Shown here piece by piece: positions 58,098 to 64,000 of a stretch of 64,000 nt of DNA. Under the pieces are notes generated by a model, which was given only the letters and a program-made list of their open reading frames with translations, made no database searches and was not told the DNA's origin. A program made the translations under genes and the position numbers. How positions within the stretch are numbered: position 1 is the first letter of the stretch; each line of letters opens with the position of its first letter. Source of the DNA: Candidatus Gastranaerophilales bacterium (GTDB lineage: Bacteria > Cyanobacteriota > Vampirovibrionia > Gastranaerophilales > Gastranaerophilaceae); assembly GCA_944324425.1 (NCBI GenBank), contig CALUWE010000003.1, positions 62,001 through 126,000 on the forward strand. The letters are read 5' to 3'.

Positions 58098-59131
58098 AAA
58101 TGAAAGCAATAATGTATTATGCCCCAAAGGACATAAGATATGAAGAAGTCAATATCCCCGAACCAAATGAAGGCGAGGTTCTGGTTAAGGTAGAAGCGGC
58201 TCTCACCTGCGGAACGGATGTTAAAACATTTAGACGCGGACACCCCGTTTTAATTAAAAAAACTCCGTCAGGCTTTGGGCATGAATTTTCTGGAATCATT
58301 GCAAAATTAGGGGAAAATGTCGAAGGCTTCAATGTCGGCGACAGAGTTGTTGCTGCAAATTCCGCGCCATGCGGTGAATGCTTTTTCTGCAAAAAAGGTG
58401 AAGAAAACCTGTGTGAAAACTTGGAACTTTTAAACGGTGCATACGCGCAATACATTTTGATACCAAAAAATATAGTTGAAAAAAATCTCATAAAAATTCC
58501 CGATAACCTGCCGTATAAATTGGCGGCCTTTACAGAGCCTTTATCAAATGTAGTTCACGGTATATCAAGAACGCCCATAAATAAAGGCGATACTGTTGGC
58601 GTTATCGGAATCGGCCCGATAGGACTCATGTTTTGTGCACTTGCAAAATTAAAAGGCGCAAAAGTAATCGCAATGGGAAGAAACCCCTTGAAACTGCAAC
58701 TGGCAAAAGATTTTGCCCATGTTGATGAAGTTATAGATTTAAAAAAATACGAAGACCCGACAGAAATTGTTCTTTCCATGACCGAAGAAAAAAGAGGGCT
58801 GGACGTTGCAATAGAATGTGTCGGTTTGCCTGAAATTTGGGAATCTATGTTCAAAATCGTTCGCCGCGGTGGCTGTGTACACCTTTTTGGAGGCTGCGCA
58901 TCAGGCACAAGCGTTAATATAGACACAAAAAGACTTCATTATGATGAAGTGAATATAATAAGCGTATTTCATCACACCCCGAAATATTTCAGAGAAGCGC
59001 TTGAGCTTATTGCATCTGGAAAAATTGAGGTTGAAAAGCTGATTACAAAGACAATGCCTCTAAAATACACAAAACGCGCGCTTGAAATGCAGCAAAACGG
59101 CGAAGCCATAAAAGTTTTGATTGAGCCTTAG
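58094..59131 (+). CDS. Zinc-dependent medium-chain dehydrogenase, tandem copy 2
   Basis: A 345-residue MDR dehydrogenase resembling sorbitol/threonine dehydrogenases. Cys39 (TCGTD), His63 and Glu64 (GHEFSG) bind catalytic zinc, Cys93, 96, 99 and 107 bind the structural zinc, and GVIGIGPIGLM is the NAD site. It overlaps copy 1 by the 4-nt ATGA junction, so both may act in one pathway or as a heteromer. Substrate unknown. Confidence 0.88.
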   Translation: MKMKAIMYYAPKDIRYEEVNIPEPNEGEVLVKVEAALTCGTDVKTFRRGHPVLIKKTPSGFGHEFSGIIAKLGENVEGFNVGDRVVAANSAPCGECFFCKKGEENLCENLELLNGAYAQYILIPKNIVEKNLIKIPDNLPYKLAAFTEPLSNVVHGISRTPINKGDTVGVIGIGPIGLMFCALAKLKGAKVIAMGRNPLKLQLAKDFAHVDEVIDLKKYEDPTEIVLSMTEEKRGLDVAIECVGLPEIWESMFKIVRRGGCVHLFGGCASGTSVNIDTKRLHYDEVNIISVFHHTPKYFREALELIASGKIEVEKLITKTMPLKYTKRALEMQQNGEAIKVLIEP

Positions 59132-59138
59132 TTTTTTC

Positions 59139-59166
59139 TTGACTTCACATCTTGAATTGGTATTAT
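59139..59166 (+). promoter_or_regulatory. Promoter of tRNA-Phe
   Basis: TTGACT (59139-59144), a 16-nt spacer and TATTAT (59161-59166), about 50 nt ahead of the mature tRNA. Confidence 0.55.
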
Positions 59167-59216
59167 AAAGAAAGTTCAGACAAGCAGTTCGGCTTTCTGA
59201 AAAAAGCAAATAATAT

Positions 59217-59289
59217 GCCGCAATAGCTCAGTTGGTAGAGCAAGGGACTGAAAATCCCTGTGTCCTTGGTTCGATTCCGAGTTGCGGCA
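59217..59289 (+). tRNA. tRNA-Phe (anticodon GAA)
   Basis: A 73-nt cloverleaf. The acceptor stem GCCGCAA (59217-59223) pairs with TTGCGGC (59282-59288) with discriminator A. The D arm GCTC/GAGC, anticodon arm AGGGA/TCCCT with GAA at 59250-59252, and T arm CTTGG/CCGAG with TTCGATT loop are all canonical. The 3' CCA is not encoded. T-runs follow and probably end transcription. Confidence 0.97.
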
Positions 59290-59306
59290 TATTTTTTTAT
59301 TATTTT

Positions 59307-62300
59307 TTATTCTTTACCGACGGCAAACCTTAAGCCTGCATTAAGAGTAACGCCGTTACGACCGCCGTTTTGAACAAGCGCCTGACCAAAGAATGTGAGC
59401 CTGTCATTTTTAAACAGCTTCTGAACGCCGACACCGTATTGAACATAAGGATCAATGCTCATTTCGGGAAGTCTTACATCATTTGCCGTAACCTTGGTTT
59501 TATCAAGAATGTTCCAAATCATATCAGCTCTTAAATACGGCTGCCAGCCTGATTCGGTATTCATGATAAACTTAACTCCCGGGGCAATTTGAATGGCATG
59601 CAACGGGTCTGATTTTACTTTATACCCTGCAGCGCTTGTATAATCAAATGTATTAACAAAAGTGTATGTCAAAAGCAAATTAGGCTGGAATATAAATTTG
59701 CCGTCTTTAAATTCAAAGTTGTAACCGAATTTGTTACCTATACCTGATACAAACATGGTATAATCTTCATCACCGTAATATGTTGATGAACTGCCTACTG
59801 AAGCACCGGCAGAAATTGTTGTTGCGTTAAAAAAGTTGTTTTTATATAAAGTTGCAGTAAGGCCTGCCAAACCGCCGTTTTGATATGTATCAATGCCTGA
59901 ATATCTTTGGCTTGCACCGTTATATCCCAAATAACCGGTTAAAACTCTTTCCCAACCGTTTCTTAGGTGTCTTAAATTAGTGTCATAACCAACCAACGTA
60001 CCGTAAGAAATGTTTGATACATCAGGACCGTTATTTAAAGGAATATTTTCAAAAGATGAATAAGGTTTAACCCAAACACCCGACATATCAAGCTTTGTTA
60101 ACAACGGAGAGAAATTACCGACATCAGTTGTGTCAGACGTTGGAGCATAAGCATATCTGTCCGAATTTATAACTGCCATACGTTCAAAAGAAGGAAGTGC
60201 CATAAATGCATCAGAATGTTTGAATGCATATTCAAAAGTTTGAAGCTGTGAGGTGTAGGCGCCTGCCTGAGATGAAATTGAAGGCGAAAGCGCCGAAGGG
60301 TTATAGCTGTCATAAGAAGAAGCATTGCCCCTGTTAAATACAAAATAACCCATATCATCATCTTTAATATTATAAGCAATGTCATACTTATAAATGGGTG
60401 AATAAGCAACATTCTTTTCATTAACGGAAATAGGATTATCACCTTTATATTGAACATTATTAGCAATTTCTTTATCAGCATAAAGAATTGAAACGCTGTC
60501 TTTATCAGTGTCATTCAATAAGTTCAGGAATGTAACATTGATATTGGGGTTGTTTTGATTGTTAACAACATAGTTATTTGCCGTAATTCTGTCCATTGTT
60601 TCTTGTTGCAAGTTAACATCGGCCGTTGTTTGAATAGTGTTATTCAAAGTAAGGGTATTAAAAGCGGTAGAGCCGATTTGGCTGTTAACCATATCAAAAG
60701 TACCGGAATTAAATGTCATGTTATTATTTCTAAGTACATCGTCTCTTGTTCCGAGCTTCAAAGTAACATTGTTTAAAAACATATCGGCTTCACCTTCAAC
60801 ATCATTGTTAAAGACAATTTTGCCTGTACTGTCGCCGGTTACGTATATTTTATAATTTTCGTCATTTTCTTCTTTTATAACATTTTCGGTAATTTCGTCT
60901 GTGGAATTATCATAAATTTCCTGAATTTCAGAACCGCCCTTTTCACCGTTTATTTTATCGTCAATTTGAATTGTGCCGTTTGTTTTAGCTTCCAATATCA
61001 AACTGGAGGGCTGAACTTTATAAGAAGTAATCTCAACAGGGTTATCAATTTCATATATGGTTGTCGCAAGAGTGCTGTTTGCCATATAAATGGCATTGTC
61101 GTCTCTTTCGCCGTCAGAAACGGTGTAGTTGCCGGAAATCAAAGAAGTATAGCCGTCTTTAGCCTGAATTTTAATATTATGTGTCGAATAAATTGCACCG
61201 CCTTTTGCCGTTCCGTCGGATTCAGCGTGGTTATTAATAAATGAAGCGTTAGAAATAACCATGGAAGTAGCAGGCAAGGAAGAAACAGGATAATTTTCAT
61301 CCAAATATTTACCAAAGTCGCCTTCTATTGCACCTTCGGAAGAAACAACGAAATTAATAAAGTCATCTACCGAATCAAAGGACATTCCGGATTCTGACAT
61401 AATATCTTTTACTTCATTTTCAGACATAATCTCGGTAGAAATGTCATATGAACTAATTGTTTTATTATTATCAATAAAAGCTTTAATGATGACAGGACTT
61501 AAATCATGCGAAGTCGAAAAGACCTTTTCGGTTCCGTCATTCATTTTAATTTTTACAACGTTAATTTCAATCGGTTGAAGCGGCATATTTGTATCATAAG
61601 ACAAAGGAAGAGATTCATTATAAATTGCACCGCCGTATGCAACCGCATTTTCTCCGGTTGCTTTTGCATAGTTTTCAACAAAGTTGCCTTCAACTTTACC
61701 TGCCATAAACGAGTTAAGCAATGCACCGCCATAAGCATTTGAATTTTCGCCGGACGATAATGCAGCGTTCTTATAAAAATCACCCTTAATTGAGCCGATT
61801 GTGCCGGCATTATAAATTGCACCGCCGCCTGCAAAGGAATTAAGCGCATCTGATGCAGTTGAAGAGTTATTTGAAAAATTACCCGCGATTTTATCAATAA
61901 CGGAATCCTCCTGCATATTTGAAACGGCGCCGCCAAGACTTTCAGAATAAAAAGAAGCAGAGGATGAAGAACTGTTATTATAAAAATTGCCGTTGATATT
62001 TGAAATGAGTCCGTCATTTACAATTGCGCCGCCGTATGAATAAGCGGAAGTTCCTGCATAAGAAGGGCTTGTAACAAGCGAATCTGATTTATTTGAAATA
62101 AAATCACCTGTAATATTTGCTATCAATGAACTGTTTTGTATTGCGCCGCCATAAGATTCTGCATAGCCTTCATCTGAAATTGCATTTGCATAGTTGGCAA
62201 TAAAATCACCCGAAATATCATAAATAAATGCATTATAAGACGAAATTGCGCCGCCTGAAGCAGAAGCATATCCGTCAACAGTTTCAGCCTTTACATAATT

Positions 62301-63377
62301 TTGTATAAAATTACCGGCAACAGAATTAACATCAACACTATCAATGGCAATTGCACCGCCGTATGAATAAGCATCATATTCAGAGCATGCCTCAGAGGCG
62401 TTTTGAATAAAATCACCTTTAACGGATTCCAAATTGCCTCCGGAATAAAGGGCGCCGCCATAAGAAACAGCGGAATTATCAGCAATGGAAACAGTCTTAT
62501 TACCTATAAAATTGGCATTTATAGTGCCGATATTAGCGCCATGGTTATTGGTGATTGCACCGCCTGCAACTTCACTTTCCCCGTATTGGGTTTCAGCAGA
62601 AGCAATATTATTTACAAAATTGCCGTTTATGGAGTCAATTGAAGAACTTTCGTTAGAAATCGCACCGCCGGCGGAAACAACATTTCCGTTTATTGAAGAA
62701 ACAACGGAAGAGTTTTCGACAAAATCTCCGGTAATATCGCCAATAAGAGAATTGCAGCTGTTAATTATAGCGCCGCCGTATATTGAAACATATCCGTTCG
62801 CATTTGTTATTGCAACTCGGTTTTTAATAAAATTGCCGTTAATATCGCCAATTACACCTTCATAGTTAGTAATGGCGCCGCCAAAAAAGTGGCCTGCGCT
62901 GCCGTCCGCTAAAATCGAATTGCCGTAAAAATCGGCATTAATGTCCGCCAAATCACCGTAATTTGCAATTGCACCGCCTTGAGTAACACCATCCGTTAAA
63001 AGATTAAAAAATGAACCCTCAACAGTCTGGTTGGAAAAATCATGATTTTCTAATCTTGCATTTGAAGTGCCGGTTAAATCAACAGGAACATAGTTAAACA
63101 AAATCGTACCCGTTTTTGAATACGGAGAATCAACCGAAATGGTTTTTGAGCCGGACTTATTGCCGTATTGCGTAACATCCAGATTAACTTTATAGTATTT
63201 CGGAGAATAAGAACCTTGACTTGAATCCGGCTCATATTTAACAATAACATTTTTACTGCTGTCAGAGCTGTCTGTTTCAGTAAGTTCGTATGCCAAAGCA
63301 GGTGATAAATATAAAGTCGGAAAACTAAACAAAAGCAATGCTGCAACTGCGCCTTTCGGGGAATGAAAGCTAGCCAT
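59307..63377 (-). CDS. Pmp-like autotransporter with GGA[ILV]/FxxN repeats
   Basis: A 1356-residue surface protein. The signal peptide (AVAALLLFSFPTLYLSPALA) is followed by a passenger with about fifteen GGA[ILV] motifs and fourteen FxxN motifs spaced 25-40 residues apart, for example GGAITNYEG..INGNFIKN. This pairing is the hallmark of chlamydial polymorphic membrane proteins. The last about 280 residues (from about 1075) form an autotransporter beta-barrel, beginning GVWVKPYSSFEN and ending LNAGLRFAVGKE. The ATG at 63377 has GAGGG upstream; the frame extends eight residues further from TTG. Expected to be an adhesin-like outer-membrane protein. Confidence 0.9.
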   Translation of the reverse strand: MASFHSPKGAVAALLLFSFPTLYLSPALAYELTETDSSDSSKNVIVKYEPDSSQGSYSPKYYKVNLDVTQYGNKSGSKTISVDSPYSKTGTILFNYVPVDLTGTSNARLENHDFSNQTVEGSFFNLLTDGVTQGGAIANYGDLADINADFYGNSILADGSAGHFFGGAITNYEGVIGDINGNFIKNRVAITNANGYVSIYGGAIINSCNSLIGDITGDFVENSSVVSSINGNVVSAGGAISNESSSIDSINGNFVNNIASAETQYGESEVAGGAITNNHGANIGTINANFIGNKTVSIADNSAVSYGGALYSGGNLESVKGDFIQNASEACSEYDAYSYGGAIAIDSVDVNSVAGNFIQNYVKAETVDGYASASGGAISSYNAFIYDISGDFIANYANAISDEGYAESYGGAIQNSSLIANITGDFISNKSDSLVTSPSYAGTSAYSYGGAIVNDGLISNINGNFYNNSSSSSASFYSESLGGAVSNMQEDSVIDKIAGNFSNNSSTASDALNSFAGGGAIYNAGTIGSIKGDFYKNAALSSGENSNAYGGALLNSFMAGKVEGNFVENYAKATGENAVAYGGAIYNESLPLSYDTNMPLQPIEINVVKIKMNDGTEKVFSTSHDLSPVIIKAFIDNNKTISSYDISTEIMSENEVKDIMSESGMSFDSVDDFINFVVSSEGAIEGDFGKYLDENYPVSSLPATSMVISNASFINNHAESDGTAKGGAIYSTHNIKIQAKDGYTSLISGNYTVSDGERDDNAIYMANSTLATTIYEIDNPVEITSYKVQPSSLILEAKTNGTIQIDDKINGEKGGSEIQEIYDNSTDEITENVIKEENDENYKIYVTGDSTGKIVFNNDVEGEADMFLNNVTLKLGTRDDVLRNNNMTFNSGTFDMVNSQIGSTAFNTLTLNNTIQTTADVNLQQETMDRITANNYVVNNQNNPNINVTFLNLLNDTDKDSVSILYADKEIANNVQYKGDNPISVNEKNVAYSPIYKYDIAYNIKDDDMGYFVFNRGNASSYDSYNPSALSPSISSQAGAYTSQLQTFEYAFKHSDAFMALPSFERMAVINSDRYAYAPTSDTTDVGNFSPLLTKLDMSGVWVKPYSSFENIPLNNGPDVSNISYGTLVGYDTNLRHLRNGWERVLTGYLGYNGASQRYSGIDTYQNGGLAGLTATLYKNNFFNATTISAGASVGSSSTYYGDEDYTMFVSGIGNKFGYNFEFKDGKFIFQPNLLLTYTFVNTFDYTSAAGYKVKSDPLHAIQIAPGVKFIMNTESGWQPYLRADMIWNILDKTKVTANDVRLPEMSIDPYVQYGVGVQKLFKNDRLTFFGQALVQNGGRNGVTLNAGLRFAVGKE

Positions 63378-63451
63378 ATAATAATAACCCTCGTACACCA
63401 ATTCTTATAACAGAAAATATCGACAATGTAGCCCAACAACTTTAGCTGAGA

Positions 63452-63466
63452 ATTAAGAAATGTAAC
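63452..63466 (-). promoter_or_regulatory. Shared upstream element, copy 3
   Basis: The minus strand reads GTTACATTTCTTAAT, identical to 9831-9845, about 75-90 nt before the autotransporter start. It lies between two divergent genes and could serve either. Confidence 0.4.
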
Positions 63467-63585
63467 AAGATATTATTAATATATACACATTGTTAACATT
63501 AATAAAAATAAAGCGAATTTGATTAAAATACAGCAAAATTAAAATTTTATACGTTTTATCAAAACAAAACAATTTGGTGTCATAA

Positions 63586-64000
63586 ATGCAAATTACCCCA
63601 TATAACAATATCGCTTTTGGTGCGGATATAGTATACAAAAACAGATACATAAAAGATAAACAAGACCAAACTCTTGATATAATAAGAGCACATTTGGAAG
63701 AACAGTTCGGCCCTGAATTTTTTTATGCCGAACAATTGGAAAAAGAAAATGCAATGAGATATTCACCAAGACATTATTTTTTTCCTAAAGAATCAGAAGC
63801 AATAAAAAAGAGGGAAAACGTTAATATAGATTTAATAAGACAGCAGGGAATATATGCATTTTGTGAAAGACGAAAAAACGAATTATATACAGGCTCGCAG
63901 TTATCGGATCAGCCCGAAAAATTAAAGGCGCTAAAAAAAGCCGGAATAAATTCAATAGTGTCTCTTGTTGTGTATAATGACTATGAAGAAAACGCAAAAG
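63586..64000 (+). CDS. Partial protein with dual-specificity phosphatase-like start, cut by the window end
   Basis: An open frame from ATG 63586 to the window edge (138 residues). It begins MQITPYNNIAFGAD, with the N-terminal NxxFG motif also seen in the 37.6-kb protein, then a charged helical part (about 20-90). From about 100, LYTGSQLSDQPEKLKALKKAG and INSIVSLVVYND resemble the opening of tyrosine/dual-specificity phosphatases (LYRGGQP-type then a buried strand). The catalytic Cys motif would lie beyond the window, so enzyme status is unproven. It is divergent from the autotransporter gene. Confidence 0.55.
   Translation, partial: MQITPYNNIAFGADIVYKNRYIKDKQDQTLDIIRAHLEEQFGPEFFYAEQLEKENAMRYSPRHYFFPKESEAIKKRENVNIDLIRQQGIYAFCERRKNELYTGSQLSDQPEKLKALKKAGINSIVSLVVYNDYEENAK

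What the first reader, a model, noticed from the sequence alone, without database searches (positions are those of the whole stretch)
59307..63377. Chlamydia-type Pmp repeat autotransporter outside Chlamydiae
About fifteen GGA[ILV] and fourteen FxxN motifs followed by a C-terminal beta-barrel match the hallmark of chlamydial polymorphic membrane proteins, an adhesin family. The host here looks like a cyanobacterial relative. It might be a shared ancient surface module or a transfer. The final residue pattern (ending in Lys-Glu rather than a terminal Phe/Trp) may mean a different barrel-assembly signal.
Basis: partly seen in the sequence, partly recalled or inferred. Interest (0 to 1): 0.6.

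Follow-up and report, generated by a model that had tools for sequence, protein, structure and literature searches.

The report
Pmp-like autotransporter in gut cyanobacterial relative
A gut bacterium related to cyanobacteria carries a large self-secreting surface protein whose exposed part is a long coil built from the same kind of repeat as the Chlamydia surface adhesins; it belongs to a widespread, undescribed family in its own lineage rather than looking like a borrowed Chlamydia gene.

Summary
Window 59307-63377 (-) is an intact 1356-aa reading frame with a signal-like N-terminus, 15 GGA[ILV] motifs (shuffle mean 0.16, maximum 3 in 5000), 13 of them paired with FxxN in a 32-39-residue repeat, and a 12-strand C-terminal barrel. 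AlphaFold2 gives a confident beta-helix for the repeats. The barrel model matches solved type Va autotransporters (AaaA Z 22.0, EspP, Hbp); the segment before it resembles the pertactin autochaperone. Only 3 of 13 units fit the published chlamydial core spacing. Pmp-like repeats outside Chlamydiae, including barrel-bearing ones, are already published. The host is a Gastranaerophilales bacterium: the barrel family occurs in 142 of 386 sampled phylum genomes, all in the window's order. The Lys-Glu ending is no new signal: a canonical beta-signal (NAGLRFAV) is followed by GKE, and relatives carry tails of up to 48 residues. New here: a lineage-wide family with conserved, in two genomes partly recombining, barrels and diverse passengers; sister barrels can carry different rung types. 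Adhesion is inferred, not shown.

The parts
59307..63377 (-). complete CDS of the autotransporter, 1356 aa
   Evidence: ATG 63377; GAGGG at 63388-63392 ten bases upstream as a likely ribosome-binding site (read by eye)
63291..63377 (-). signal peptide, aa 1-29 (MASFHS...SPALA)
   Evidence: read from the sequence; no signal-peptide program was available, cleavage site inferred
62979..63290 (-). N-terminal cap region, aa 30-133, similar by eye to the same region of relatives (..SPKYYKVNL..QYG.. / ..PVYYELTLKQTEYG..)
   Evidence: sequences; not modelled
61623..62978 (-). rung array, aa 134-585: fourteen GGA[ILV] and thirteen FxxN, 32-39 aa per rung
   Evidence: AlphaFold2 beta-helix, block pLDDT mostly 85-98; rung table
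61272..61610 (-). low-confidence insert, aa 590-702 (model residues 431-543, pLDDT under 50)
61191..61241 (-). isolated last FxxN...GGA unit, aa 713-729, inside the best whole-protein profile hits to POMP_repeat and Chlam_PMP
60327..60857 (-). autochaperone-like end of the passenger, aa 841-1017
   Evidence: model residues 1-177 align to pertactin 2iou_G Z 15.0, 151 residues, 2.5 A, and 1dab Z 12.1
60219..60284 (-). linker alpha-helix, aa 1032-1053
59319..60080 (-). 12-stranded beta-barrel, aa 1100-1353
   Evidence: 12 strands in the model; Foldseek AIDA-I E 2.8e-13; AaaA Z 22.0; PF03797
59319..59342 (-). last-strand beta-signal NAGLRFAV, aa 1346-1353
   Evidence: sequence, last strand in the model; the consensus is recalled, not from a call
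59310..59318 (-). three-residue tail Gly-Lys-Glu after the last strand
59216..59290 (+). tRNA-Phe, tail to tail with the gene; border of a locus whose content varies among relatives

Best explanation
It is a classical (type Va) autotransporter. [quoted passage not shown] The GGA[ILV] and FxxN motifs are the buried turns of each rung. Between FxxN and GGA each rung sends out a regular 12-19-residue strand-turn-strand excursion, so the array presents a ridge of short variable hairpins to the outside. The most likely role is a cell-surface adhesin or contact protein of a gut bacterium, with binding specificity in the excursions (inferred by analogy with Pmps). It belongs to a Gastranaerophilales-specific barrel family in which the barrel is conserved and the passengers vary.
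For: Intact ORF and periodic motifs far above shuffles. PF03797 51 bits and TIGR01414 56.8 bits. Beta-helix model with block pLDDT mostly 85-98 over the array; its best structural matches are beta-helices (1tsp Z 16.5, 307 residues, 3.8 A; Ag43 7koh_D Z 14.1). 12-strand barrel with preceding helix; AaaA Z 22.0, EspP 21.0, Hbp 20.6. Autochaperone part matches pertactin Z 15.0. All 12 modelled rungs have strand in the excursion, as two strands in 10 and one merged strand in 2. Barrel family in 142 of 386 phylum genomes, all listed hits in the window's order. Of 28 barrel relatives read at full or near-full length, the window included, 22 have at least 4 GGA...FxxN units.
Against: No experiment; adhesion is analogy only. 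The barrel model has moderate confidence (mean pLDDT 67.1, pTM 0.48, 6 sequences). The insert at aa 590-702 is unmodelled. Structural matches to polysaccharide-binding or -cutting beta-helices score as high as or higher than those to adhesins.
Confidence: 0.82

Rival explanations
1. It is a true chlamydial Pmp that moved by horizontal transfer into (or out of) Chlamydiae.
For: Paired GGA[ILV]/FxxN rungs, signal-like N-terminus and barrel in the same order; POMP_repeat over its cut-off at two places: aa 710-738, 18.5 bits in the passenger piece, and about aa 293-316, 21.1 bits in the six-frame search.
Against: Chlam_PMP stays under its cut-off (15.0-16.5 of 20.6). Only 3 of 13 units fit the chlamydial core spacing GGA-x(14,18)-FxxN. 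The barrel is 44-79% identical to its genome-mates and 32-56% to those of other genomes apart from short contig-end fragments, so the family looks old in this lineage. No middle-domain match in 98 genomes (no positive control rang).
Confidence: 0.06
2. The motifs arose by convergence on the same buried-turn geometry; the protein is an ordinary pertactin/Ag43-type beta-helix with no common descent of rungs with Pmps.
For: PMC10715098 (passages read) reports similar motifs with differing rung shapes in an archaeon, Phycisphaerae and Trichomonas. The array alone (aa 1-592) hits no Pfam family. The sister protein on contig C7 uses a shorter form FxxN-xx-G[IV], at places about 21 residues apart, so rung form changes easily.
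Against: A relative with the same barrel type, L109, matches Chlam_PMP at 191.1 bits and POMP_repeat at 164.4 bits and fits the chlamydial core pattern in 32 of 32 units, which bridges the two.
Confidence: 0.35
3. The passenger is a polysaccharide-acting enzyme (lyase or tailspike-like) rather than an adhesin.
For: Top structural matches include phage tailspikes and PL6 alginate lyases at Z about 16.
Against: These are generic beta-helix matches at 5-13% identity; no Pfam or NCBIfam enzyme family over its cut-off.
Confidence: 0.06

Closest known systems
Chlamydial polymorphic membrane proteins (Pmp; PF02415/TIGR01376 repeats, PF07548 middle domain, PF03797 barrel)
   Same: Signal peptide, beta-helical passenger with paired GGA[ILV] and FxxN motifs, C-terminal type Va barrel, several paralogues per genome.
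   Different: Shorter GGA-to-FxxN core (12-15 here against 14-18 in 75% of chlamydial pairs), always a long FxxN-to-GGA excursion in the array (12-19 against 4-5 in 57%; PMC11166332, section 3.1 read), no Pmp middle-domain match (inconclusive), pertactin-like autochaperone, barrel family confined to Gastranaerophilales among the genomes searched.
Pmp-like autotransporter of Akkermansia glycaniphila (A0A1C7PBX1, described in PMC11166332, passage read)
   Same: Pmp-type rungs with a barrel, outside Chlamydiae; gut-associated genus (recalled).
   Different: Reported as the best hit to the authors' chlamydial repeat model; not compared by sequence here.
AaaA, EspP, Hbp, AIDA-I, pertactin (type Va autotransporters)
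   Same: Barrel fold with helix in the pore; autochaperone as in pertactin.
   Different: Passenger repeats differ; sequence identity 8-17% in the structural alignments to autotransporter barrels; no sequence match of the barrel region to any solved structure.

Membership tests
Type Va autotransporter | N-terminal signal peptide | tested here: inconclusive
   Read by eye (charged, hydrophobic, AxA-type end); no predictor run.
Type Va autotransporter | C-terminal 12-strand barrel of the PF03797 type with a helix before it | tested here: met
   51 bits, cut-off 26; TIGR01414 56.8, cut-off 16.
Type Va autotransporter | Beta-helical passenger with autochaperone | tested here: met
   Predicted structure only: beta-helix; pertactin Z 15.0.
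Type Va autotransporter | Bulky hydrophobic last residue ending the last strand (typical, not universal) | tested here: not met
   Ends GKE; last strand ends in Val three residues earlier. PMC3419190 (passage read) reports the beta-motif confined to the last strand, with a bulky final residue, in 68% of autotransporters, so this is typical rather than defining.
Chlamydial Pmp | Paired GGA[ILV] and FxxN in a beta-helix | tested here: met
Chlamydial Pmp | Chlam_PMP (PF02415) over its curated cut-off | tested here: not met
   15.0-16.5 bits against 20.6. Relatives L109, L016, L097 pass: 191.1, 26.3, 22.0.
Chlamydial Pmp | POMP_repeat (TIGR01376) over its curated cut-off | tested here: met
   16.1 and 18.5 bits, 21.1 in the six-frame search, cut-off 15; but it also rings in the E. 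coli control.
Chlamydial Pmp | Core spacing GGA[ILV]-x(14,18)-FxxN | tested here: not met
   3 of 13 units; 13 of 13 fit the loosened x(12,23).
Chlamydial Pmp | Pmp middle domain (PF07548) | tested here: inconclusive
   No match in the window protein or its pieces at E up to 10 or in 98 genomes, but no positive control rang and hmmscan also missed a real PF03797 here.
Chlamydial Pmp | Barrel groups with chlamydial Pmp barrels in a tree | not testable with these tools
   No chlamydial genome was reachable.

The most novel reading that the evidence does not exclude
Gastranaerophilales, a non-photosynthetic gut lineage next to Cyanobacteria, run a diversifying surface system of their own: a large family of autotransporters in which one conserved barrel-and-linker module is kept alike partly by local gene conversion, while passengers made of interchangeable Pmp-type rungs are replaced, so that sister barrels carry different binding ridges. 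It would be an independent counterpart of the chlamydial pmp family and of antigenic or receptor diversification.
Probability: 0.35. Interest if true: 0.62.

Novelty: new variant of a known kind. Interest (0 to 1): 0.42.

Why it matters
Two autotransporter surveys whose passages I read name Proteobacteria, Fusobacteria and Chlamydiales as carriers (PMC9289746, PMC3419190), and no paper in the searched library holds both Gastranaerophilales and autotransporter. If the family works as proposed, it gives a concrete candidate for how these mostly uncultured gut bacteria touch host tissue, mucus or other microbes. It also offers rung arrays with regular excursions as a comparison set for the question whether Pmp motifs bind directly or only hold up loops.

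Tried and rejected
A specific link to photosynthetic cyanobacterial autotransporters was rejected: a profile of 33 Gastranaerophilales barrels scored at best 6.8 bits against 34 open frames of 10 such loci with filters off, while the window scored 554. Plasmid carriage: no match in 72,556 plasmid records. An integrated element at tRNA-Phe was not supported: no second copy of the tRNA 3' end, last 14-20 bases, in the window or L012. Recent DNA-level repeat expansion was not supported: Tandem Repeats Finder finds one short two-copy array, outside the rung array. An in-frame TAA reported in several relatives: in the genome's own C18 copy it is the natural stop read past by the alignment; the others were not read individually. 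Promoter scan: 18 sites against 17.4 expected, uninformative.

Results against my reading: the array itself (aa 1-592) hits no Pfam family; the gene-conversion signal comes from two other genomes (G161, G330), not from the window's genome, where the other three barrels are 44-79% identical to this one; in G161 only one of the two statistics is clear; the 28 proteins counted were picked by barrel similarity to the window, not at random. In the first-300-aa comparison some N-termini had been cut at the first ATG (G161_C5 and G330_C16a most), so those values are approximate. In the tail count, two rows were parsed wrongly (L001, whose tail is GQE, and L029), 4 of 49 rows had no parse, and L018 is a partial sequence.
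Full report
What is there. The gene at 59307-63377 on the minus strand is intact, 1356 aa, with an N-terminal signal-like stretch. It has 15 GGA[ILV] and 20 FxxN motifs; 15 of each lie in the passenger. Shuffling residues 31-760 five thousand times gives a mean of 0.16 and a maximum of 3 GGA[ILV], and a mean of 3.18 and maximum of 12 FxxN. The first 14 GGA motifs are spaced 32-39 residues apart.

Architecture. The last 317 residues match PF03797 at 51 bits and TIGR01414 at 56.8 bits. Whole-protein hmmscan missed PF03797, so absent hits in this protein carry little weight. AlphaFold2 on aa 160-1356 with five relatives models the repeat array as a beta-helix with block pLDDT mostly 85-98; the insert at aa 590-702 and the barrel were not modelled well there. 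The best structural matches of that model are beta-helices: P22 tailspike 1tsp Z 16.5 (307 residues, 3.8 A), PL6 alginate lyases, Ag43 7koh_D Z 14.1. A second model of aa 841-1356 shows autochaperone strands, a helix and exactly 12 barrel strands, the last ending three residues before the C-terminus (mean pLDDT 67.1). It matches AaaA (Z 22.0, 289 residues, 3.5 A), EspP, Hbp and NalP, and its first 177 residues match the end of pertactin (2iou_G Z 15.0, 151 residues, 2.5 A); Foldseek gives AIDA-I at E 2.8e-13.

The rungs. In the window the gap from GGA[ILV] to FxxN is 12-15 residues in 13 units, and the gap from FxxN to the next GGA is 12-19 within the array. PMC11166332 (section 3.1 read) gives 14-18 for 75% of chlamydial pairs and 4-5 for 57% of FxxN-to-GGA gaps. 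Only 3 of 13 window units fit the chlamydial core; all 13 fit the authors' loosened range. In the model, all 12 scored rungs have strand in the FxxN-to-GGA excursion, split in two in 10 and merged in 2. This is the S-shaped excursion of PMC10715098 (section 6, part 1 read) in a longer and regular form. The nearest barrel relative in the same genome (contig C7, 79% identical barrel) has a passenger with FxxN followed at once by a short G[ILVA] turn at 9 places, a tight version without the excursion. Passenger rung form thus differs between sister barrels.

Pmp membership. POMP_repeat passes its cut-off at two places. Chlam_PMP does not pass, and the array alone hits no Pfam family. Relatives do pass: L109 has 32 GGA[ILV], all 32 in the chlamydial core pattern, with Chlam_PMP 191.1 bits and POMP_repeat 164.4 bits. 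POMP_repeat rings in the E. coli control, so it is not Chlamydia-specific. The Pmp middle domain was not found in 98 genomes, but nothing rang in the controls either, so this is inconclusive. PMC10715098 and PMC11166332 (passages read) already describe Pmp-like repeats outside Chlamydiae, including an Akkermansia autotransporter; PMC6701047 (passages read) does so for trichomonads. So it works like a Pmp; membership in the chlamydial family is not shown.

Host and distribution. The 5 loci found in named genomes come from 3 MAGs, all titled Candidatus Gastranaerophilales. The window's genome (1.84 Mb, 30 contigs) has 4 copies. The barrel has relatives in 23 of 38 near genomes, the window's own included. 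The barrel-region profile A2 matches 142 of 386 genomes sampled over the phylum; every listed hit is in the window's family except one in its order. POMP_repeat matches 106 of 289 class genomes. PF03797 itself occurs in 66 of 386, including photosynthetic cyanobacteria as judged from kinship codes and genome size, whose barrels are not specifically close.

C-terminus. The last strand reads NAGLRFAV, which fits the usual beta-signal (polar-x-Gly-x-x-aromatic-x-hydrophobic; recalled), then GKE. Of 49 C-termini examined, 45 were parsed; 39 have residues after the signal (10 with 1-6, 29 with 7 or more, up to 48), 6 end at it. Two of the 45 parses are wrong in tail length (L001, L029). Tails are thus a habit of this barrel family, and the final Lys-Glu needs no new assembly signal.

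Variation. In two genomes of one genus (G161, G330; six copies fetched from each), the last 330 residues are 93.0-99.7% identical within a genome (mean 96.4, 30 pairs), while the first 300 residues average 39.0%. In the pairs profiled, identity falls sharply about 1050 bases from the 3' end in most. A Sawyer-type runs test on silent sites gives a sum of squared fragments above all 1000 column permutations in each genome; the longest-fragment statistic is reached in 62 of 1000 permutations for G161 and 0 of 1000 for G330. This supports local gene conversion, clearly in G330 and less so in G161; it was not tested in the window's genome. On a barrel tree of 28 proteins, 22 have at least 4 GGA...FxxN units; the 6 others need 6 changes, so passenger type is not tied to barrel lineage in this small, similarity-picked set.

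Locus. The gene sits tail to tail with tRNA-Phe. I fetched 11 relatives at this locus. tRNA-Phe follows the same dehydrogenase in 8 of 11. In one of them (G008) the same place, between tRNA-Phe and the same neighbour gene, holds a different 1572-aa autotransporter on the other strand without GGA motifs; in G004 and G001 other genes stand there before ffh (named from memory by its sequence). In the remaining five, no autotransporter was found near the tRNA, one of them (G005) ending at the tRNA and one (G007) on a short contig. No repeat of the tRNA end was found. The gene is thus a variable occupant of this place.

Mechanism, shown and inferred. Shown by computation: intact ORF, repeat periodicity, barrel and autochaperone type, beta-helix model, lineage distribution. 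Inferred: export, BAM-dependent insertion, surface exposure, C-to-N folding, adhesion by the excursions.

Literature searched: Gastranaerophilales with autotransporter, 0 papers; Melainabacteria with autotransporter, 1 paper by listing, a Baltic Sea biodiversity review; Gastranaerophilales with adhesin, 7 papers by listing, whose titles do not concern proteins of this lineage; Vampirovibrionia with outer membrane and surface protein, 1 by listing. The library holds only openly licensed papers.

Noticed in passing
window 59131-64000 and L079-L089: The place between tRNA-Phe and ffh holds different genes in related genomes: this autotransporter, a different 1572-aa autotransporter in G008, or none.
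   Followed up: partly
L109:193-4806: A relative from another family of the order with 32 GGA[ILV], all 32 in the chlamydial core pattern, 60 FxxN, Chlam_PMP 191 bits; closer to Pmp than the window protein.
   Followed up: partly
L090-L101 (G161, G330): Six autotransporter copies fetched per genome with near-identical barrels and diverse passengers; an identity drop about 1050 bases from the 3' end and patchy silent-site identity.
   Followed up: partly
G384, G338, G209, G169: First-look candidates for the barrel profile number 21-29 in single genomes, but only 3 per genome were scored; copy numbers may be very high.
   Followed up: no
G006, G279, G384: Several contigs begin or end inside the barrel sequence, as expected if near-identical barrels break assemblies; copy counts are then too low.
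   Followed up: no
L009:4789-14925 and L010:3281-6268: Two further autotransporters, 3378 and 995 aa, on one contig of the window's genome; the first has a 26-residue basic tail after its last strand.
   Followed up: partly
window 63586-63999; L009:3772-4386; L010:6357-8588; L097 N-terminus: Proteins next to the autotransporters begin with a short stretch containing N..[FY]G (NNIAFGA, NNVSFGS, NNISYGA); L097 itself has NDVQFGG before its hydrophobic stretch. It may be a lineage-specific N-terminal signal; a loose pattern count over window genes was not discriminating.
   Followed up: partly
G399, G393, G383: PF03797 matches in other members of the phylum within open frames of 6571-9433 aa, each barrel match split into two parts.
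   Followed up: no
window 59310-63401: hmmscan misses a real 51-bit PF03797 match when given the whole repetitive protein, but finds it in the last 317 aa; such barrels may be under-annotated.
   Followed up: yes
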